Shown piece by piece: positions 32,957 through 42,486 of a stretch of 42,486 bases of DNA. Within the stretch, counting starts at the first letter, position 1. Every line of letters begins with the position of its first letter. The notes beneath the pieces are model-generated. The model did not search any database and was not told where the DNA came from. It saw nothing but the letters and a program-made list of their open reading frames with translations. Position numbers and translations under genes: made by a program. The DNA comes from Actinomycetes bacterium. GTDB taxonomy: Bacteria; Actinomycetota; Thermoleophilia; Solirubrobacterales; Solirubrobacteraceae. The stretch is from the NCBI GenBank assembly GCA_021846845.1, contig JAJZWB010000013.1:1-42486 (forward strand), written 5' to 3'.

Positions 32957-33754
32957 CTAGCAGGGAGCCTTGCCCGTGACGGTCTGCGTCTGCGTGGTGC
33001 CGGCTCCGCCGTTGGGGGAGGGCAGCGTGGCCTTGAACGTCTCGGCGTAGGGGCGCGTCCTGCCCATGCACCCGACCGAGGCGAACAGCGGGACGGTCCT
33101 GCCCTTCACCTTCATCGTGTGCTTGGCCCACACCAGGTGCTCCACCTCAAGCGACCCCGCGACTGCGCCGGGCCCGAGCGGGTAGTCGACGAAGCTCGGG
33201 ATCGGCACGTCCAGCACCATGTACTTGCCCTGCTGCCGGACGGTCGCGGGATAGGGACCCACCTGACCGGTCTTCAGGCCGACGCACTGATGCGTGGGCG
33301 TGTCGACGAAGAAGAAGGTCAGCTTGCCGCCCCCGCTGTTCCAGACGTGCAGCAGCGGCGTGCAGGGCGAGCCCGATGCCGTGAAGTTGTTGGCGGGCCC
33401 GAGCACGGCGGTGATGTAGCCGCTCGCCACGAGCGCTCCCTTGGGGCACTTGGCGTCGGTCTTGGCGTTGGCGATCTCGGTCGCCGAGCAGGTCGGGAAG
33501 CCCTTTGTGTTCGCCATCACGCCGTAGACCCTGGTCCGCAGGTCGACCAGCACGGCCGTCCGGTTGCCGTTGGTCCCCTTGGCGGTGATGTTCTGCGTGA
33601 AGCCGATCGGGACGGGCTTGCTCCTGGTGCCCGCCGCCTTGGTCGTGAACCTGAGCGTGTGGGTGTAGGTGTTGATCGCGGTGGTGGCCGCGACCGCCAC
33701 GCCCGCGACCGCGAGCGCGCCGAGCGCGGTCGCGATCAGGATGATGCGTCGCAA
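32957..33754 (-). CDS. Secreted six-cysteine protein, family unknown (265 aa)
   Basis: A signal peptide is evident (M-R-R-I-I-L-I-A-T-A-L-G-A-L-A-V-A-G, cleavage probably near A-V-A-A). The mature part is beta-rich with many Thr, Gly and Lys. It has six cysteines including F-P-T-C-S-A-T-E-I-A followed by A-K-C-P-K-G, and ends in Cys. I recall similar secreted proteins with an F-P-T-C-S-A-x-x-I motif as an expanded family in Thermoleophilia; their function is not known to me. The start is a TTG at 33754, fixed by AAGGAGGAG 4 bases upstream. It is the last gene of the mce transcript (72 bp after it), so a role in that envelope system is possible. Confidence 0.85.
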   Translation of the reverse strand: MRRIILIATALGALAVAGVAVAATTAINTYTHTLRFTTKAAGTRSKPVPIGFTQNITAKGTNGNRTAVLVDLRTRVYGVMANTKGFPTCSATEIANAKTDAKCPKGALVASGYITAVLGPANNFTASGSPCTPLLHVWNSGGGKLTFFFVDTPTHQCVGLKTGQVGPYPATVRQQGKYMVLDVPIPSFVDYPLGPGAVAGSLEVEHLVWAKHTMKVKGRTVPLFASVGCMGRTRPYAETFKATLPSPNGGAGTTQTQTVTGKAPC

Positions 33755-33757
33755 ATC

Positions 33758-33766
33758 ACTCCTCCT
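33758..33766 (-). promoter_or_regulatory. Strong Shine-Dalgarno deciding a TTG start
   Basis: AAGGAGGAG lies 4 bases before the TTG at 33754 and is the best ribosome binding site seen in the window. It excludes the longer reading frame beginning at 33802. Confidence 0.85.
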
Positions 33767-33826
33767 TGTGGTTGTACTCCCGCGCGGACGAGAGGCCCGC
33801 ACTGGCGATGAGCGCGAGCCCGTGGC

Positions 33827-35329
33827 TCACGGCAGCGGTTGCAGATGGGGGAAGCTCTGGACCTGGCCGGTGGTCAGCGTGCCGAGCGGCGGCTGGGCCG
33901 AGCACGCGGGCCCCTGCGGCGCCGAGGTGTAGTAGTACTGCGACACGAGTTGCGCGAGAGTTAACACGGTTCCCGTCACGGAAGTTGTGCTCTGCGACAG
34001 CGTCGGGCCGAGCGCCGGCAGCGGATGGCCCGTGCACAGGTAGCTGCCGAACACGCTCAGCCCCCGCAGCAGCTGGGCGTACCCGCCGGGGGCCATGTAG
34101 GGGTTGGAGCGGTTCGTGGACGGACGGTACGGGTAGGGCGTGAGCAGCTCGGGCCCGATCGGGTTGGAGATCCGCAGATAGTGGGCGTTGCCCCCGTTGG
34201 CTGAGGAGAAGAAACCCTGGGTCGTCGCGGTGCTGTTGGCGAAGAACGCCGCGATCTCCCGCCGGTAGGAGTTGGCGTACTCGATCACCGGCACCAGCTG
34301 CCCGAGATAGGGCTTCAGCGCGATCAGGAACGGCACGCTCTCGTTCAGGAACGTCGAGAGGGCCGGGAAGCCCGCGGCCGAGGCGCGGGTCAGCGGCGCC
34401 ACGTAGGTCATCAGGTCGCGGAGCTCCGGCGCGAGCGTTGCCGCCCCCTCCAGGACCGGGGACAGCTGGGCGGCGGCCGGGCGGAGCTCGTCGACCAGGG
34501 GCCTGGTCGTGCGCGAGAAGCGGGCCAGGCGGCCGAGCGTCAGGCGCGTCTGGTCAAGGAACGCGGGGAGGGCCCGGATCGCCGCCTCAAGCTCGACGTC
34601 GCGCGCCGCCGTCGCGGCGAACGTCGCTTCGCTGTTGGTGACGAAGCCCTGCAGGGCGGCCGGCGAGCGCCCGAGCGCGGAGAAGACCTGACCGCCGTAG
34701 TGCAGCAGGGCGCTGGTGGCCGAGCTCTCGCGTCGGAGCACCGAGAGCACCGCGTCGACATTGGTCGCGAACGGGTAGAGGTCGGCGAACGCGGCGCTGA
34801 ACTGCTGGCCTCGGTTGGTGAGCGCGATCCCCCCCTGCTGCATCCAGGTCTCAAACGCCCGGCGGGTCCGCGGGTCAAGCGCCGAGAAGATCTGATCCAG
34901 CTGCACGGTGGGCGCCACCTGGGCCCGGGGGAGCGTTCCGCCGTCGGCGAGCATCGAGCCGCCCGGCGTGCCCGGCGAGAGCTCCACGTAGGTCTCCCCC
35001 AGCAGCGTCTTGGCGCGCAGGATCGCGCGCGTGTCCGCTGGCCGGGGCGCGTAGCGGTGATCGATCTCGATCACCGCCCGGTCCAGGCCGGTGCGGCGAT
35101 CGAGCGATACGCTCACCACCCGCCCGACCGGTACGCCTGAGATCTGCACCTGCGCCTGCGCGGCGAGCTCGACCGCCTGGTTGAACTCAACGCTGAAGCG
35201 ATAGCCCTTCGAGGCGAGCGGCACGCTACCGCCGAACGAGATCCACAGGAAGATCAGCAGGCCCACGCACGAGGCGGTGAAGCCCGCCATCGCGATCATC
35301 TGGAGGGTCGACGGACGCTGCTTGCTCAT
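33827..35329 (-). CDS. MCE-family lipid-transport protein, sixth Mce subunit (500 aa)
   Basis: One N-terminal helix (about residues 12-32) leads into the MCE domain (about 40-120: Y-R-F-S-V-E-F-N-Q-A-V-E-L then V-Q-I-S-G-V-P-V-G-R-V, ending L-G-E-T-Y-V-E-L-S-P-G). A long helical region (about 150-400) follows, as in Mce proteins whose helices form a lipid tunnel. Near the end are G-N-A-H-Y-L-R-I-S and two cysteines (Y-L-C-T-G and P-A-C-S-A). The ATG at 35329 overlaps the stop of the preceding mce gene. The frame is open upstream to 35563 but that is not used. It is last of the six mce genes. Confidence 0.93.
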   Translation of the reverse strand: MSKQRPSTLQMIAMAGFTASCVGLLIFLWISFGGSVPLASKGYRFSVEFNQAVELAAQAQVQISGVPVGRVVSVSLDRRTGLDRAVIEIDHRYAPRPADTRAILRAKTLLGETYVELSPGTPGGSMLADGGTLPRAQVAPTVQLDQIFSALDPRTRRAFETWMQQGGIALTNRGQQFSAAFADLYPFATNVDAVLSVLRRESSATSALLHYGGQVFSALGRSPAALQGFVTNSEATFAATAARDVELEAAIRALPAFLDQTRLTLGRLARFSRTTRPLVDELRPAAAQLSPVLEGAATLAPELRDLMTYVAPLTRASAAGFPALSTFLNESVPFLIALKPYLGQLVPVIEYANSYRREIAAFFANSTATTQGFFSSANGGNAHYLRISNPIGPELLTPYPYRPSTNRSNPYMAPGGYAQLLRGLSVFGSYLCTGHPLPALGPTLSQSTTSVTGTVLTLAQLVSQYYYTSAPQGPACSAQPPLGTLTTGQVQSFPHLQPLP

Positions 35330-36702
35330 GGCGACGAGGGGCAGCTGTACTGGTTGGTGCCGGCGATCGGAGTCGCTCCCGGCAGCTGCGCCGTCGGTGG
35401 CGCGTTGAGCAGGTCCAGGATCACGCCGATCGGCGCGTCGCTCGGCTGCAGGGTGTTCTCGAAGAAGTTCAGCTCGGTGCAGGTGCCCATGAAGATCCCC
35501 TGGATAACGGCCCCGTTGGCGTCCTGGGCGGAGACGAGGCTGTCGGCGATGTGCGCCAGCCACGAGCCCCAGAACAGGTAGCCCTGCCTCCCGCCTCCGG
35601 GCTGGTGGGCGAGCGTGTCGACCAGCGTGTTGAGCACGGACACCGAATCAGACAGCGACGGGATCGTCGGCTTGAGCTGGGCGGCGGCTGGCGCCAGCGT
35701 CCGGGCGAGCGGCTGGACCGCGACCGAGAAGGGCCCGAGCTGGTCCGCGATCACCGGCGTCGTATCGCGGAACAGGGGCCTGACCGCCTTCAGCGCCGGA
35801 CCGAGGTTGCGCGCGAACGGGACGAGACCCGAGAGCGCGGTCGTGCTCGCGCTCGCGTAGGACCTCACCTGACCGAGCGTCCGGGTCGTCTGGCTCAGCG
35901 TGCCGGGGAACAGCGAGAGGGCTGACTGCAGCTGGCGGTCGCTGGCGGCGATCGCGGCGAAGTTCGCATCGGACGCGGAGATCAGCGAGGCCAGCTGCGA
36001 GTCGACCCCGCCGAGCGAGCTGGTCACGAGGTTGAGGTTGTGGATCGCGCGGGTGATGTTGCGCCGCCGCTGCGCGAGCAGCGCGGCGAAGTCGAGCGTG
36101 TGACGGTCGAGCGGCGCGAAGCGCTTGAGCGTTCCGCGCAGGCCCGCGACCGCGGCGGGGCTCGGAGCCTCGCCGCCGGCACCGTGTCCGTGGAACGCCA
36201 GCGCGCCTCCGGAGAGCAGCAGGAGCAGGTAGCTGCGCGTGTCCGCGTCCAGCGAGGAGAGGATCTGCGAGACGTCGACGTCGGGCTGCGTGTTGGTGGC
36301 CGGGAGCGTGCCGCCGTCGGGGATCGCACCCGTCGACGGGGTACCGGGATCCAGCGACAGGTACATGTCCTTGAGCGGCGTGCGCGGTCGCAGCAGCACC
36401 GTCGCGTTGCGGTAGATCGGCGCGTAGCGCTTGTAGATGTTCATCGTCACGACGGCCTGGCCGCCCTGCAGCGACACGCCGCCGACCTGCCCGACCTGCA
36501 CGCCCGCGATCGTCACCGCCTGGCCCTGGCCGGAGGTGACCGCCGCGGCGGTCGTGAAGTGCGCGTAGACCGTGTAGTAGCTCTGGCCGAACACGAACGC
36601 GGGCTGGTGGCCGAGGATGTAGCCGGTGACGCCGATCGCCGCGACCACGAGCGCCGCGATCGCCGCGAAATCAAGGCGGTGGGCGCGGATCGCACGCCTC
36701 AC
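35326..36702 (-). CDS. MCE-family protein, fifth Mce subunit (458 aa)
   Basis: The N-terminal helix (about residues 11-30) precedes the MCE domain (about 40-122: Y-T-V-Y-A-H-F-T-T-A, G-V-Q-V-G-Q-V-G-G-V, L-K-D-M-Y-L-S-L-D-P-G). A helical region to about 370 and a C-terminal tail follow. The tail has W-G-S-W-L-A-H-I and two cysteines (G-T-C-T-E and Y-S-C-P). It lacks the H-Y-L-R motif of its siblings. The GTG at 36702 overlaps the TGA of the upstream mce gene (GTGA), while the frame itself is open to 37194. Its stop overlaps the next ATG. Confidence 0.93.
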   Translation of the reverse strand: MRRAIRAHRLDFAAIAALVVAAIGVTGYILGHQPAFVFGQSYYTVYAHFTTAAAVTSGQGQAVTIAGVQVGQVGGVSLQGGQAVVTMNIYKRYAPIYRNATVLLRPRTPLKDMYLSLDPGTPSTGAIPDGGTLPATNTQPDVDVSQILSSLDADTRSYLLLLLSGGALAFHGHGAGGEAPSPAAVAGLRGTLKRFAPLDRHTLDFAALLAQRRRNITRAIHNLNLVTSSLGGVDSQLASLISASDANFAAIAASDRQLQSALSLFPGTLSQTTRTLGQVRSYASASTTALSGLVPFARNLGPALKAVRPLFRDTTPVIADQLGPFSVAVQPLARTLAPAAAQLKPTIPSLSDSVSVLNTLVDTLAHQPGGGRQGYLFWGSWLAHIADSLVSAQDANGAVIQGIFMGTCTELNFFENTLQPSDAPIGVILDLLNAPPTAQLPGATPIAGTNQYSCPSSP

Positions 36703-38141
36703 GGGCCGACCCCCGTCCGGACCGAGTTCAGGTTCGGCGGCGCGCTCCTGAGGCACGGGACGGTGGACACCAGCGGCGGTGGGCTGCCCGGGAAGGCCGG
36801 CCGGGTGCCCAGCGACGGCAGCACCGCGTTCCCGTACAGGGGCCCGTCGGTCCCCAGCGGCCCGGTCTGCACGCGATCGGAGCCGCCGCCCGCCGTCGCT
36901 CGCACATAGCGCCCGTTGCCGTCGAAGTTCTGCGCAGCGGACGCGATCCCGACCGCGCTCTGGAGCAGCTCCTGGTAGAGCTGGAGGCCCGTGGTCAGCG
37001 GCGGGTCCTGGACGTACTCGTTGCCGGTCGGGATCAGCGTGTGCACGAAGCACTGCGCCAGCGCGTCGGAGCCGCGCAACAGCTTCTGAGAGGAGATCAG
37101 CGTCACGGCCGTGCCCTGGAGGGCCGGGGTCAGCGAGGCGAGCAGGCCGCCGAGCTCGCGCCTGGACATGAGCCTGGAGGCTGCCGAGAGCCATGGCATG
37201 CCGGTGTCGATCGTCGACGCGAGCTGGTCGACGCCGGGCGTGAGCGCGGCTGCGAACCGCTGCGTGGGCCCGTAGGACGCCTCCAGTGGGCCGAGCGCCG
37301 AGTCGGCGCTGCGCAGCAGCGGCGGCAGCAGCGCGATCGTCTGCGAGAGGTCCTGCTGGCGGGACGCGAGCGCTCCCATCGTCTGGTCGAAGGTGGTCAC
37401 GAGATCCTGCAGGTGGGCGCTCTGCGAGGCGAGCGCGGACAGGGTCCGCTCGCTGCCGCCGACGGCGCCCGAGAGGTCGTGCGGCTGCTGTCCGAGCAGC
37501 GCCTGGTTGACCAGCGTGGATGCCTCGAACGCGGCCGCGGCGTAGTTCAGCGACCGGTTGAGGGCCTGTCCGGCGGTCAGGCCGCGGACGCTCGGGTCCT
37601 GGGTCGCGTCCTGCGCGGCCGTCGGCCTGACGTTCAGCGCCTGACCGAGACCCTGCAGGAGCGTCTGGAGGTTCTGGCGGGCGTTCGAGTCAAGGGCCGA
37701 GAGGACGCGATCCAGCTGCACGGGGCCGCTGGTCTGCGAGGCCGGCAGCGTTCCGCCTGAGGCGAGCGTCGGCGCTCCCGGCGTCCCCGGCTGGAGGTCG
37801 ACGTAGAAGTTCCCCTCCAGGAACAGCCGGGGGCGGATCTGGGCGGTCGCGTCTGCATGGATCGGGAGGCCCTGCCGATCGATCGTCATCGTCGCGATCG
37901 CCGCGGTGCTCGAGCCTCCCACGCGTCCGATTCCGGTCACGGTGCCGACGTCGACGCCGGCGATGCGCACGGGCGAGCCCAGGTGCAGCTGGGTCTGGAC
38001 GGTGAACGCCGCACGCAGCACGAACGTAGAGCTGGAGAACGGCAGCGGCCCACCGAACACCAGCCAGCAGACGGACAGGATCACGGTGGCGCCGATCAGG
38101 CCGGCGGCGAGGTTGGAGACCCTCTGTCGGCGACGTCGCAT
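36699..38141 (-). CDS. MCE-family protein, fourth Mce subunit (480 aa)
   Basis: After a basic N-terminus and one helix (about residues 9-29), the MCE domain covers about 40-118 (A-A-F-T-V-Q-T-Q, V-R-I-A-G-V-D-V-G-T-V-T-G-I and L-F-L-E-G-N-F-Y-V-D-L-Q-P-G). A long helical part follows. The C-terminal region has N-G-R-Y-V-R and two cysteines (A-Q-C-F-V and V-P-C-L-R). It starts at ATG 38141, 3 bases after the end of the third subunit gene. As a component of an Mce complex it would help move lipid or steroid substrates across the envelope, powered by an Mla-type ATPase encoded elsewhere. Confidence 0.93.
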   Translation of the reverse strand: MRRRRQRVSNLAAGLIGATVILSVCWLVFGGPLPFSSSTFVLRAAFTVQTQLHLGSPVRIAGVDVGTVTGIGRVGGSSTAAIATMTIDRQGLPIHADATAQIRPRLFLEGNFYVDLQPGTPGAPTLASGGTLPASQTSGPVQLDRVLSALDSNARQNLQTLLQGLGQALNVRPTAAQDATQDPSVRGLTAGQALNRSLNYAAAAFEASTLVNQALLGQQPHDLSGAVGGSERTLSALASQSAHLQDLVTTFDQTMGALASRQQDLSQTIALLPPLLRSADSALGPLEASYGPTQRFAAALTPGVDQLASTIDTGMPWLSAASRLMSRRELGGLLASLTPALQGTAVTLISSQKLLRGSDALAQCFVHTLIPTGNEYVQDPPLTTGLQLYQELLQSAVGIASAAQNFDGNGRYVRATAGGGSDRVQTGPLGTDGPLYGNAVLPSLGTRPAFPGSPPPLVSTVPCLRSAPPNLNSVRTGVGP

Positions 38142-38144
38142 CGC

Positions 38145-39566
38145 TCAGCCGCCCGCCCTGGTCGACTGCGTCCTGGTTCCGAGCCTGCCGGGCGGGTTGC
38201 CGATCACCGCACGGCTCGGGTTGTAGGGCTCGTTGCCGGCGGCACACTCCAGGGGCTGGCCCGGCGCGGCGGTGTTCGGGTACGGGTTCACGTGCAGCGG
38301 CCCCGAGGAGCCGGCGGCCGGTCCGGCGTAGACCCCGCTCGACGGCTCGGACTCGAACCCCGGCTGGTCGGTGATCGCCACCTGGACGAAGCGCAGGAGC
38401 CCGCCCTGGCTGACGTGCTCGGACAGCAGGCTGGCCGTGTTGCGCAGGAACAGCGTCACGTAGTTGCAGGTTGTCTGCGCGGGTGTCAGGAAGGCGAGCG
38501 GAGGGCCGAGCTTCCCAAGCGTCAGCGTCAGGCGGTCGAACCCCGCCAGCACCGACGGGTTGCCCGCATAGGAGGCCAGGCTGCGGGAGAGCGCGACCGT
38601 CCGGCTGTCGAGCGCGGACGTCCCGGGGAGCGTCCGCGTGCCGATCGCGAACGCGCTCGAGAGCACCGGCGCGCTGCGCGGCAGGGTCGCGATCCCGGGC
38701 TGCAGCGTGTGCAGCAGGCCGGCGGTGTCGGCCAGGAAGGACCCGATCGCCGGCGAGTCGGCGATCGTCGCCGAGAACATCGGCGGCGTGCCGGCGATCG
38801 CGTCCTGGAGATAGGGGACCGCGACGTGCGCGAGCGCCGTGAACGTGGTATCGAGGTCGGCGAACAGCTGCGCCTGCGCCTGCGCGACCGGAGCGAGGCC
38901 GCCGACCCAGCTGTCCAGGCCGCGGAGGAAGCCGGCGAGGCCGGTCGAGCGCGACGAGAGGTTGGTCATGACCGGCCCCAGGTCGCCGATCAGCGGGACG
39001 AACGCCCGGATCGCCTGGTTGAGGTCGTAGCCGCGTCCGGCGACCGCGAGCCCGAGGCCGATGGTGGACCGCTGGACGCCGATCCGCGTCGGCGGCGTGA
39101 ACATCGACAGGACCTTGTCGAAGTCGACCTCGGTGGACTCCTGCGTGATCGGGACGGTGGCGCCGTTGGCGAAGCCGCGGTGCGAGCGGCCGAGAGTGAT
39201 CTGCAGGTACTTGAGGCCGATCGCCCCCTTCAGCCGCACGGTGAACGTCGAATCGACCGGAAGCGGCTCGATCGACTTCTGCAGCCGCAGGTTCAGCAGG
39301 GCGATCGGGCGGCCGCCCGGCAGCCGCGCCGGCGTGACGCTGGACACGACCCCGACCCGCGCTCCGCCCATGTTGACCTCGTCCCCATAGGTCAGCTCGC
39401 TCGCGTCGGCGGCCTGAACGTGGAGCGTGTAGCTGGGCACGAACGGCAGGCCGTTGGTCGCGTTGTAGGCCAGCGTCACGGCGACGATCGTGACCAGCAC
39501 GGTCAGGGCGCCGATCAGGACGGGGCTGGCGGCCGGACCGCGACCGCGGCGACGCCTGCGCCTCAT
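38145..39566 (-). CDS. MCE-family protein, third Mce subunit (473 aa)
   Basis: The start has eight Arg among the first ten residues, then a helix (about 15-34) and the MCE domain (about 45-130: Y-T-L-H-V-Q-A-A, V-N-M-G-G-A-R-V-G-V-V, G-L-K-Y-L-Q-I-T-L-G). The helical region follows. Its C-terminal part has T-T-C-N-Y-V-T-L-F-L and L-E-C-A-A-G-N-E-P-Y, i.e. two cysteines, and ends in a polar tail. The H-Y-L-R motif of three siblings is absent. Residues around T-T-C-N-Y-V-T-L-F-L-R-N resemble C-termini I recall for actinobacterial MlaD proteins. ATG 39566 lies 16 bases after the second subunit gene. Confidence 0.92.
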   Translation of the reverse strand: MRRRRRRGRGPAASPVLIGALTVLVTIVAVTLAYNATNGLPFVPSYTLHVQAADASELTYGDEVNMGGARVGVVSSVTPARLPGGRPIALLNLRLQKSIEPLPVDSTFTVRLKGAIGLKYLQITLGRSHRGFANGATVPITQESTEVDFDKVLSMFTPPTRIGVQRSTIGLGLAVAGRGYDLNQAIRAFVPLIGDLGPVMTNLSSRSTGLAGFLRGLDSWVGGLAPVAQAQAQLFADLDTTFTALAHVAVPYLQDAIAGTPPMFSATIADSPAIGSFLADTAGLLHTLQPGIATLPRSAPVLSSAFAIGTRTLPGTSALDSRTVALSRSLASYAGNPSVLAGFDRLTLTLGKLGPPLAFLTPAQTTCNYVTLFLRNTASLLSEHVSQGGLLRFVQVAITDQPGFESEPSSGVYAGPAAGSSGPLHVNPYPNTAAPGQPLECAAGNEPYNPSRAVIGNPPGRLGTRTQSTRAGG

Positions 39567-39582
39567 CCTCGCCCGCCGCCGC

Positions 39583-41181
39583 TCATCCCCGACCCCCCAG
39601 CAGGTAGCTGAGCAGTCCGGTCAGGGTCTGGGCACCGCCCCCAGCCGCCGAGGCGGTTCGCAGCGCCGCCGCGACGATCGCGTCGCTCACGGTCCGGCCG
39701 CCGCCCGAGCCGGCCGACCCCGCCGACCGGACCGAGCCCGCCGATCCGGAGGACCCGACCGACCCCGCTGGCCGAACCGAGCCGGAGGACCCGGACGGGC
39801 CGGCCGACGCGACCGACCCCGCCGACCGAACCGAGCCGGAGGACCCGGACGGGCCGGCCGACGCGACCGACCCCGCCGGGCCCGCCGACGCCGTCGGCCC
39901 GGCGTGAGATCGCCCGCCCGCCCTCGCGGCCAGCGCAGCGCGCGCCGCGGATGCCGCGCTCGCCCCGGAGCCGAAGTTCGCCGAGCACCCCGGGACCGGA
40001 CTGGTCGCATAGTTGGTGCAACTTGAGACCAGCGGCTCGTTGCGCAGGTAGTGGCCGAGGGAGTTGAAGCCGTTGCCCGCGACCGCGCCGTTGAAAAGGA
40101 GCGCCATCAGCTGCTGGATCCCGCCCGTGCTCTGCAGGCTCGCCAGCAGCCGGCTCAGGTTGGCGCTCGCCGGCCGGCCGGCGTTCCCGAGCTGGCCGAG
40201 GCGCTGGGCCAGAGGAAGCGTCGCGACCAGCGAGGGCGCGGAACGGCTCGCGGCCGATCCGAGCTCCGTGAGCGCCCTGCGCGCCTGCGCCGCGAACGGC
40301 ACCAGGTTCGCGAACTGGCTGCCGAGAGCGCTCGCGCTCGCGCCGAGGTCGGTCATCACCGGCGTGCCCTGCGCGGCCAGCTGGCCGAGATCGGCCATCA
40401 GCGGTCGCAGCCGGCTCAGGTAGGACGGGAGCAGCCGGACGGTCTGCGAGATCTCGCGCGTCCGCGCCGCGCTGGCCACCGCGGTCGTGTTCGCCTCCGT
40501 CACGAAGCCGGCCAGCTTGCGCCTGACCTGCGCCAGCGGTCCGAGCACGCGGTCGGACGCGGTCGCGAGCTGCGCGAGCACCCGGTTCTGACGATCGAGG
40601 ATCTGGAGCACCTGGTCTGTCTGCCGAAGCGCCGGGTTGGCACGGAGGATCACCGCGTTGAGGTCCGATCCCCGGGCCGCCAGACCGGTGCCGAACTCGT
40701 CGATGATCACGGCCAGCGACTGGCGCACCGGCATCGTCGAGATGTCCTGCACGATGTCGAAGTCGATCGGAGAGCTGGTCCTGGTCACCGGCAGGTAGTG
40801 GCTCCCGGCGCCCGGTCCCGAGCGGATCAGCGGCAGCGGCGGCGAGCCGGCGCTGCCGGGCAGGCAGTCGACGTACTCCTCTCCGATCAGCGACTGGGGA
40901 CGGATCGTGCAGGTGGCGTTGGCGTGGAACGGCTGGAAGGCCGGGTTGTCGACCGAGATCGTCACCGCGGCGAGGTTGTCCCTGGTGACCGACAGCGCCC
41001 GGACCGAGCCGACGTTCGCACCGGCGATCCGGACGTCCTCCCCCGTGGCGGCGAACGACGCGTCGTCGAAGATCGCGCGGACGAGGTAGGTCGGTCGAGA
41101 CGCCGGCGAGCCCACCGTGAGCAGCGTCGCGGCCGCCGCCGCGATGGCGAGCGCGACGGCGATCGACACAATGCGCCTCAC
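39583..41181 (-). CDS. MCE-family protein with low-complexity C-terminal tail, second Mce subunit (532 aa)
   Basis: A helix at about residues 5-23 precedes the MCE domain (about 32-112: Y-L-V-R-A-I-F-D-D-A-S-F, V-R-I-A-G-A-N-V-G-S-V, I-G-E-E-Y-V-D-C-L-P-G). Within the domain lie C82 and C98, a pair missing from its siblings. The helical region is followed by L-G-H-Y-L-R-N-E-P and S-S-C-T-N-Y...P-G-C-S. The last 130 residues are Gly/Ser/Ala-rich and include an exact 54-bp tandem duplication (39772-39825 and 39826-39879). GTG 41181 overlaps the stop of the first subunit gene. Confidence 0.93.
   Translation of the reverse strand: MRRIVSIAVALAIAAAAATLLTVGSPASRPTYLVRAIFDDASFAATGEDVRIAGANVGSVRALSVTRDNLAAVTISVDNPAFQPFHANATCTIRPQSLIGEEYVDCLPGSAGSPPLPLIRSGPGAGSHYLPVTRTSSPIDFDIVQDISTMPVRQSLAVIIDEFGTGLAARGSDLNAVILRANPALRQTDQVLQILDRQNRVLAQLATASDRVLGPLAQVRRKLAGFVTEANTTAVASAARTREISQTVRLLPSYLSRLRPLMADLGQLAAQGTPVMTDLGASASALGSQFANLVPFAAQARRALTELGSAASRSAPSLVATLPLAQRLGQLGNAGRPASANLSRLLASLQSTGGIQQLMALLFNGAVAGNGFNSLGHYLRNEPLVSSCTNYATSPVPGCSANFGSGASAASAARAALAARAGGRSHAGPTASAGPAGSVASAGPSGSSGSVRSAGSVASAGPSGSSGSVRPAGSVGSSGSAGSVRSAGSAGSGGGRTVSDAIVAAALRTASAAGGGAQTLTGLLSYLLGGRG
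39772..39879. repeat. 54-bp tandem duplication within the second mce gene
   Basis: Two nearly identical copies encode an 18-residue Ser/Gly/Ala unit in the C-terminal tail. Shorter related units flank them on both sides, so the whole tail seems to have grown by slippage. Confidence 0.85.
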
Positions 41182-42486
41182 TGGCCCGGCGGCACGGCGG
41201 TCGTGTCGCAGCCCGGGACGCTCGACGGCGCCGACCCGTCCGGCGTCGGCTGCACGGCGCTCCCCGGACAGCGGTTGTGGACGACCTGCAGGCCCTGATA
41301 GCGCTGCGAGGGGAACTGGGTGGAGAGGCGGTTGGAGGAGTCCAGCGAGAACGGGAACAGCGCCGGCTGGGTGCGGAGGTAGTGGCCGTTGGCGTCGTAG
41401 TACGCGCTCGCCTGGCCGACGTCAGCCAGGGCGGCGATCACGTCGGGCCAGTACTGGCGCAGGTAGGCCACCTGGCTGCTGGAGTCGTGGAACTGAGCGA
41501 TCAGGTGGGTGAACGCCCCGGAGGCGATCTTCGCCAGCCGAGGGGTGGCGAGCGCCAGCTGCGTCAGGTCCCCGGTCTGCGCCGGGCTGTGAATCAGCGC
41601 GTCGAGCGCGCCCACGGTCGGGATCGAAGCGGACACCAGCGTGCGCAGCGACGCCGCGAACTGCGGCAGCCGCACGACCGCCGGCTTGGACGCCGCGACC
41701 AGCGGGTCGAGGCGGTCAAGCGTCGTGCGCAACCCGGCGAACGCGGCCGAGGAGCGTCTCAGCGTGCCCGGCAGCAGCGCCAGCGCCTGCTCGAGCGCCT
41801 GGCTCTGGGCCGCGACCGCGCCGGTGGCCGTCGAGGTGTTGGCGAGCAGCTGGCTCAGCTGCGTGCTGCGCGCGGCCAGCGCCTGCATCGCCCTCGCGCC
41901 CTGGACCACGAGCGAGTCGAACACCGGCTGGTCACGGGTCAGCTCGGCCGTGACCTGGGCGGTGCTCTGCAGGCCCGGAGCCAGATATTGGAGCGCGCGG
42001 TTGGCGGCCCGGCCCTTCCCTGCCAGCGACGCCGCCTCGCCCTGGATCACGTTCGCCAGCCCCGCCCGGGTGAGCGGATCGAAGGCGTCGAACAGCTCGT
42101 CGATGTTCACCTCTGAGTATGTGTGGGTGACGTCGATCGTTCCGCCGCTCGAGATCTCCGGAGCCGCGGCGGGACCGGGCTCCAGCTCCACGTAGCGGCT
42201 CGCTATCCCCGAAAGGGAGTCCTCGAAGATCCGCGCCACGGTGCCCTGGTGGAGCGGGCCGACCCCGCCGTCCAGCGACAGCCTGACCGCCGCCTGCCCG
42301 TCCGCGGTCAGGCTGATGGAGGTGATCGTTCCGACCGCCGCCGGCCCGATCAGGACGCTGTCGCCGGTCACGAGGCCGCTCGCGTTCTGGAAGTCGGCCG
42401 TGAGGACGTAGGGCGAGCTCCCGGTGGCCACCAGGACGGCGACGACGGCCGCGGCGAGGGCCAGCGCGCCGGCCACAGCCCAGCGT
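41178..42486 (-). CDS. MCE-family protein, first Mce subunit in window (N-terminus cut)
   Basis: The frame is still open at the window edge (R-W-A-V-A-G-A-L-A); a GTG at 42476 could be internal. The hydrophobic segment is followed by the MCE domain (Y-V-L-T-A-D-F-Q-N-A-S-G-L-V-T-G-D-S-V and I-A-S-R-Y-V-E-L-E-P-G), then a long helical region. The C-terminus has N-G-H-Y-L-R-T-Q-P and two cysteines (N-R-C-P-G and P-G-C-D-T). It heads the visible part of the operon; YrbE-type permeases are expected upstream, outside the window. Confidence 0.92.
   Translation of the reverse strand, partial: RWAVAGALALAAAVVAVLVATGSSPYVLTADFQNASGLVTGDSVLIGPAAVGTITSISLTADGQAAVRLSLDGGVGPLHQGTVARIFEDSLSGIASRYVELEPGPAAAPEISSGGTIDVTHTYSEVNIDELFDAFDPLTRAGLANVIQGEAASLAGKGRAANRALQYLAPGLQSTAQVTAELTRDQPVFDSLVVQGARAMQALAARSTQLSQLLANTSTATGAVAAQSQALEQALALLPGTLRRSSAAFAGLRTTLDRLDPLVAASKPAVVRLPQFAASLRTLVSASIPTVGALDALIHSPAQTGDLTQLALATPRLAKIASGAFTHLIAQFHDSSSQVAYLRQYWPDVIAALADVGQASAYYDANGHYLRTQPALFPFSLDSSNRLSTQFPSQRYQGLQVVHNRCPGSAVQPTPDGSAPSSVPGCDTTAVPPGQ

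What the first reader, a model, noticed from the sequence alone, without database searches (positions are those of the whole stretch)
33827..42486. All six Mce subunits share a C-terminal cysteine pair, four with a G-x-Y-(L/V)-R motif before it
Each of the six Mce proteins ends with two exported cysteines in its C-terminal region, outside the MCE domain. Subunits 1, 2, 4 and 6 also have a matching motif shortly before (N-G-H-Y-L-R, L-G-H-Y-L-R, N-G-R-Y-V-R, N-A-H-Y-L-R). This suggests a common C-terminal module held by disulfides that could close or cap the lipid tunnel or bind a partner. Mce complexes are known lipid transporters; this module is, as far as I know, not described.
Basis: partly seen in the sequence, partly recalled or inferred. 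Interest (0 to 1): 0.6.

Follow-up and report, generated by a model that had tools for sequence, protein, structure and literature searches.

The report
Disulfide-stapled tips of Mce lipid needles
All six Mce proteins of this soil actinobacterium end in a strictly conserved pair of cysteines, almost certainly one internal disulfide each, in the already known 'portal' that forms the outer tip of Mce lipid-transport needles; such pairs, gained and lost two at a time, occur in Mce proteins across the Actinomycetota, including the solved mycobacterial complex.

Summary
The six genes are mceA-F of an Mce operon (order Solirubrobacterales) cut by the contig end. Each protein has exactly two cysteines in its C-terminal region. 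In 86-102 distinct order-level orthologues per subunit, 558 of 574 proteins have exactly two. In 57 clusters from other Actinomycetota the count is even in 339 of 342 tails, while cysteines in the N-terminal anchors are mostly odd in number. Counts change at least 42 times on a cluster tree, nearly always by pairs and subunit by subunit, which points to intrachain disulfides. G-x-Y-(L/V)-R belongs to a wider element ([FY]-D-x-N-G-x-[YF]-x-R) directly after the last needle helix, homologous in A, B, D, F and weakly E, but absent from C; in D it lies between the two cysteines. The 'undescribed capping module' is the portal domain of the mycobacterial Mce1 structure (8FEF), whose chains A, B, D and F carry such pairs. 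I found no mention of these disulfides in the papers held; the journal version of the structure paper was unavailable. The locus is a new member of a known kind with an apparently unreported conserved feature. Here all six tails are stapled, and MceB has an extra, order-specific pair. Portal placement and bonds are inferred, not measured.

The parts
41178..42485 (-). mceA, 5' end cut by the contig end (435 aa readable)
   Evidence: PF02470 and TIGR00996 matches; first of the colinear A-F set in related loci
39583..41181 (-). mceB (GTG start; 532 aa)
   Evidence: PF02470; colinear orthologues
38145..39566 (-). mceC (473 aa)
   Evidence: PF02470; colinear orthologues
36699..38141 (-). mceD (480 aa)
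   Evidence: PF02470; colinear orthologues
35326..36702 (-). mceE (GTG start; 458 aa)
   Evidence: PF02470; colinear orthologues
33827..35329 (-). mceF (ATG start; 500 aa)
   Evidence: PF02470; colinear orthologues
41373..41399 (-). MceA 363-371 YDANGHYLR, proposed entry of the portal strand
   Evidence: G367 invariant, R371 85/86; aligns with B, D and F in profile comparison
41268..41270 (-). MceA Cys406
   Evidence: 86/86 orthologues
41208..41210 (-). MceA Cys426
   Evidence: 86/86 orthologues
40042..40065 (-). MceB 373-380 NSLGHYLR
   Evidence: D/N373 and H377 conserved; aligns with the A motif
40018..40020 (-). MceB Cys388
   Evidence: 89/90
39985..39987 (-). MceB Cys399
   Evidence: 89/90
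40909..40911 (-). MceB Cys91 in the MCE domain (pairs with Cys106 by inference)
   Evidence: 87/90 in the order; no Cys in the MCE domain of MceB in 57 clusters of other Actinomycetota
40864..40866 (-). MceB Cys106 in the MCE domain
   Evidence: 87/90 in the order
38466..38468 (-). MceC Cys367
   Evidence: 102/102
38244..38246 (-). MceC Cys441
   Evidence: 101/102
37050..37052 (-). MceD Cys364
   Evidence: 101/101
36900..36926 (-). MceD 406-414 FDGNGRYVR, between the two Cys
   Evidence: D407, N409, G410 and R414 conserved
36753..36755 (-). MceD Cys463
   Evidence: 100/101
35500..35526 (-). MceE 393-401 QDANGAVIQ, divergent form of the motif
   Evidence: D394 98/98, G397 97/98; weak profile alignment with the B motif and first Cys, 32% probability
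35479..35481 (-). MceE Cys408
   Evidence: 95/98 at the column; 96/98 proteins have exactly two tail Cys
35341..35343 (-). MceE Cys454
   Evidence: 89/98 at the column (gappy alignment); 96/98 proteins have exactly two tail Cys
34172..34189 (-). MceF 381-386 NAHYLR, strand after the last needle helix in the model
   Evidence: AF2 model: helix to 366, strands 369-375 and 381-387 (low to moderate confidence); aligns with the A motif
34034..34036 (-). MceF Cys432
   Evidence: 90/97 at the column; 95/97 proteins have exactly two tail Cys
33902..33904 (-). MceF Cys476
   Evidence: 96/97

Best explanation
These are the C-terminal portal segments of a heterohexameric Mce lipid transporter. Each subunit runs from an N-terminal anchor through the MCE ring domain and a long needle of helices. 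It then enters the portal at the tip with a short strand, which here begins with the [FY]-D-x-N-G-x-Y-x-R element. The otherwise irregular polypeptide around that strand is held in shape by one intrachain disulfide per subunit, made outside the membrane, plausibly by the VKOR-dependent oxidation system that the genome encodes. The disulfides are structural staples for a tip segment that has little regular structure of its own. Shown: conservation, parity, gain and loss in pairs, independence between subunits, homology of the motif in A, B, D and F. Inferred: placement in the portal barrel, actual bond formation, the structural role.
For: Both tail Cys are invariant or nearly so in every subunit; 558 of 574 order-level proteins have exactly two. 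In 57 clusters of other Actinomycetota the tail count is even in 339 of 342, whereas non-zero N-terminal counts are odd in 86 of 108. At least 42 changes of Cys number on the cluster tree, with only three odd tips; pairs in C and E come and go whole while the other subunits keep theirs, which favours bonds within one chain. In MceF of other groups the counts of 2 and 4 follow a clear pattern: PPxC...YC alone, or with NxPC...xxxC. M. smegmatis Mce1 chains A, B, D and F carry such pairs. The C-termini of all six form the portal beta-barrel there (AlphaFold model of the same). The motif follows the last needle helix, and in the F model HYLR is in a strand. VKOR is present in the window's own genome and 33 of 40 relatives; DsbA-VKOR makes disulfides in exported mycobacterial proteins (PMC12421883).
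Against: No coordinates were available, so no S-S distance was measured; the single-chain models are poor in the tail (pLDDT about 35-70). Tail profiles of this order match those of other Actinomycetota only weakly subunit by subunit (best 48% for A-A), so homology of individual cysteines across the phylum is not shown except by position in the chain. PMC12421883 does not mention Mce proteins as substrates. The preprint of the Mce1 structure does not mention disulfides.
Confidence: 0.82

Rival explanations
1. The cysteines form bonds between neighbouring subunits, tying the six tails into a covalent ring at the tip.
For: In this order all six subunits have exactly two, as a closed chain of six bonds would need.
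Against: In other Actinomycetota whole pairs are missing from C, E, and rarely A, B, D or F, while the remaining chains keep even numbers (339 of 342); a chain of bonds between subunits would leave single cysteines in the neighbours. C and E presence occur in all four combinations.
Confidence: 0.07
2. The pair is a redox switch or a thiol site that opens or closes the portal, or binds a metal or a partner, rather than a structural staple.
For: The portal barrel is closed by loosely packed side chains in the solved structure and how it opens is unknown.
Against: Pairs are dispensable in C and E, differ in spacing (median 11 to 100 residues between subunits) and show no CxxC-like or metal-site pattern; nothing here indicates redox sensing.
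Confidence: 0.06
3. Chance or composition: exported proteins of Actinomycetota simply tend to have few cysteines in even numbers.
For: About 64% of exported mycobacterial proteins have even cysteine counts (PMC12421883).
Against: 99% even in tails against mostly odd counts in the N-terminal anchors of the same proteins, plus near-absolute positional conservation.
Confidence: 0.02

Closest known systems
Mce1 transporter of Mycobacterium smegmatis (PDB 8FED/8FEE/8FEF; PMC9882608), portal domain
   Same: Six colinear MceA-F proteins with MCE domain, long helical region and C-terminal segment; tails of A, B, D and F with cysteine pairs; a G-x-aromatic element after the last helix is enriched in B, C and E of other Actinomycetota.
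   Different: Here all six tails carry a pair (the MceE tail of the Mce1-type cluster L111 has none); MceE has no lipobox-type cysteine; MceB has an extra MCE-domain pair; motif reads [FY]D.NGHYxR; tail sequences otherwise hardly alignable.
Mce1A/Mce4A four-domain description with C-terminal 'tail domain' (PMC8420772)
   Same: Same domain order and a tail of very variable length.
   Different: There the tail is called unstructured, of role not understood, and cysteines are not mentioned.
MlaD / PqiB / LetB MCE proteins of Gram-negative bacteria
   Same: MCE domain (PF02470; MlaD solved structures are top sequence matches).
   Different: According to PMC8420772 no such tail domain exists in the E. 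coli homologues.

Membership tests
Actinobacterial Mce transporter (mceA-F type) | Six consecutive genes, each with one MCE domain, in fixed order | tested here: met
   colinear A-F in the related loci
Actinobacterial Mce transporter (mceA-F type) | Two YrbE permeases and an MceG ATPase | tested here: met
   MlaE permease pair and ABC ATPase upstream of mceA in L148. In the window's genome the permease pair is on another contig, C19; contig C166 reads directly into mceA. The ATPase of the window's own genome was not sought.
Actinobacterial Mce transporter (mceA-F type) | Long helical needle region after the MCE domain | tested here: met
   TIGR00996 matches through about residue 285, below its curated cut-off; AF2 secondary structure helical to 359 (A) and 366 (F)
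Mce portal domain (8FEF) | Each C-terminus contributes one strand to a six-stranded barrel | not testable with these tools
   Needs a hexamer model; the single-chain F model shows strands right after the last helix
Mce portal domain (8FEF) | Sequence similarity of the tail to that of Mce1-type proteins | tested here: inconclusive
   Profile comparison with tails of other Actinomycetota: 48% (A-A), 12% (B-B), 2% (D-D, F-F); MCE and needle parts match strongly
Disulfide-bonded exported protein | Cysteines conserved and lost in pairs | tested here: met
Disulfide-bonded exported protein | Measured S-S bond | not testable with these tools
   No coordinates or mass spectrometry available

The most novel reading that the evidence does not exclude
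Every actinobacterial Mce portal is a disulfide-dependent structure. Mce lipid uptake therefore depends on the DsbA-VKOR pathway, and reduction of the staples opens or dismantles the portal, giving the cell redox control over lipid import.
Probability: 0.1. Interest if true: 0.7.

Novelty: new member of a known kind. Interest (0 to 1): 0.4.

Why it matters
The C-terminal tail of Mce proteins was called unstructured and of unknown role until the Mce1 structure showed it to be the portal. Strict pairwise conservation of its cysteines across the phylum says that the irregular part of the portal is a defined, covalently stapled structure in nearly every Mce system, including the mycobacterial lipid importers. 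It also predicts that Mce assembly depends on the oxidative folding pathway, which can be tested directly in M. smegmatis.

Tried and rejected
PLSDB plasmids by tblastn with MceF: no match. Matching the tails to 8FEF chains by profile: alignments stop at the end of the needle. AlphaFold2 of single chains A and F: MCE domain good, needle and tail poor, so no disulfide geometry can be read. Foldseek of the F model against PDB: top matches are Mce1 chains and MlaD, but with meaningless rmsd beyond the MCE domain. The journal version of the structure paper is not held. Considered and rejected: bonds between subunits, metal site, redox switch, chance (see rivals).

Full report
What is there. The last 8.7 kb of the window carry, on the minus strand, six adjacent genes with one MCE domain each. 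They are mceA-F of an actinobacterial Mce operon; the window ends at the contig end inside mceA. Contig C166 of the same genome ends in a 95% identical copy of the mceA start, without permease genes in front of it, and the two YrbE-like permeases lie on contig C19. A related locus (L148) has permease, permease, ABC ATPase, mceA-F and then an MMPL protein. Named close relatives are Solirubrobacterales.

Checking the observation. Tail cysteines are at A 406/426, B 388/399, C 367/441, D 364/463, E 408/454 and F 432/476. The tail is enriched in Cys within the window (12 of 748 against 4 of 2130 residues, p = 5.5e-5), but conservation is the stronger test. Forty related loci gave 36-41 orthologues per subunit with essentially every tail Cys invariant. 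With 80 further named loci, 86-102 distinct sequences per subunit, 558 of 574 have exactly two tail Cys and only 5 have an odd number. This is despite overall identities of only about 30-64% to the window proteins.

The motif. G-x-Y-(L/V)-R is part of a longer element after the last needle helix: A YDANGHYxR (G 86/86, R 85/86), B D-x-x-G-H-Y-L, D FDGNGxYxR, F HYLR, and in E a divergent D-A-x-G-P-x-x-R. Profile-profile alignment of the tails places these on top of each other for A-B, A-D and A-F (92-93%) and B-D (90%), less clearly for B-F (70%) and B-E (32%); C has no such element. In other Actinomycetota a G-x-aromatic element after the last helix is strongly enriched in B, C and E. The pairs themselves do not form one layout: median spacing is 23, 11, 78, 100, 32 and 43 residues in A to F, and in D the motif lies between the cysteines. 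So there is a common entry element plus a private disulfide per subunit, not one repeated module.

Beyond the order. From genomes across the phylum I took 57 complete six-gene clusters. Tail cysteine numbers were even in 339 of 342 proteins: A, B, D and F almost always have at least one pair; C has 0 or 2; E has 0, 2 or 4. In the N-terminal anchor region of the same proteins, non-zero counts were odd in 86 of 108. On a tree of the clusters, counts changed at least 4, 4, 8, 8, 10 and 8 times in A to F. Gain and loss two at a time, chain by chain, is what intrachain disulfides predict and what bonds between subunits do not.

Known structure. A mycobacterial cluster (L111) is orthologous to the solved M. 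smegmatis Mce1 over full length for chains A, B, D and F, and those chains carry the cysteines. Counting along those alignments gives A C301/C358, B C312/C340, D C344/C362 and F C321/C348/C366/C380. In that structure the C-termini of all six subunits form the portal, a six-stranded beta-barrel with irregular surroundings at the far end of the needle, proposed as lipid entrance (PMC9882608). The preprint does not contain the word disulfide, and two other Mce papers do not mention cysteines. Of the Mce1 chains, C beyond residue 309 and F beyond 399 were not modelled. The preprint also lists Mce1D 268-547 as unmodelled, but Foldseek reports 385 modelled residues for that chain, so I treat the D cysteines as probably modelled. 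Whether the deposited model contains S-S bonds could not be checked here.

Mechanism. Best-supported reading: the tails are the portal segments, each entering the barrel with the motif strand and held by one intrachain disulfide formed after export. The genome has VKOR, and DsbA-VKOR is shown to oxidise exported mycobacterial proteins (PMC12421883). The role as a structural staple is inference. AlphaFold2 single-chain models agree only weakly (helix then strands at HYLR in MceF, low confidence).

Order-specific extras. MceB of Solirubrobacterales has a second, strictly paired cysteine set, C91/C106, flanking the S-L-I-G-E-E-Y loop of its MCE domain; 82 of 90 order members have exactly two Cys there, and none of 57 other MceB does. 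By alignment with MlaD this is the pore-loop hairpin (my knowledge of MlaD), so one of six ring subunits may have a stapled pore loop. MceE has no N-terminal lipobox-type cysteine, unlike the mycobacterial MceE.

Verdict. Observation confirmed and much strengthened; interpretation half right. The module is known as the portal; its pairwise conserved cysteines appear unreported in the papers available to me. New member of a known kind, with a testable general feature; interest 0.4.

Noticed in passing
window 40864-40911 (MceB C91, C106): An extra invariant cysteine pair inside the MCE domain of MceB, flanking the pore-loop hairpin; present in 87 of 90 Solirubrobacterales orthologues at each position, absent from MceB of 57 other actinobacterial clusters.
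   Followed up: partly
window 35267-35269 (MceF C21): A cysteine in the N-terminal transmembrane helix of MceF conserved in 91 of 97 orthologues; it does not look like a lipobox.
   Followed up: no
window 32957-33802, minus strand: Directly downstream of mceF: a secreted, cysteine-rich protein of about 270 aa without any Pfam match even at E 5. Homologues lie at the same place in about a dozen close relatives, twice in tandem in L132. Candidate partner of the needle tip.
   Followed up: partly
G000:C166 end and G000:C19:11090-12563: In this genome mceA-F are not preceded by yrbE; the permease pair lies on another contig. In L148 they precede mceA with the ATPase.
   Followed up: partly
window 39640-39920 (MceB C-terminal end): Low-complexity G/S/A/P repeat after the second tail cysteine of MceB, resembling collagen-like sequence (weak match); length varies greatly between orthologues.
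   Followed up: no
G035, G038, G054 and G015: Some relatives carry many mce genes (25 matches, the scoring cap, in G035, G038 and G054; 23 in G015), so Mce systems are strongly amplified in these non-mycobacterial actinobacteria.
   Followed up: no
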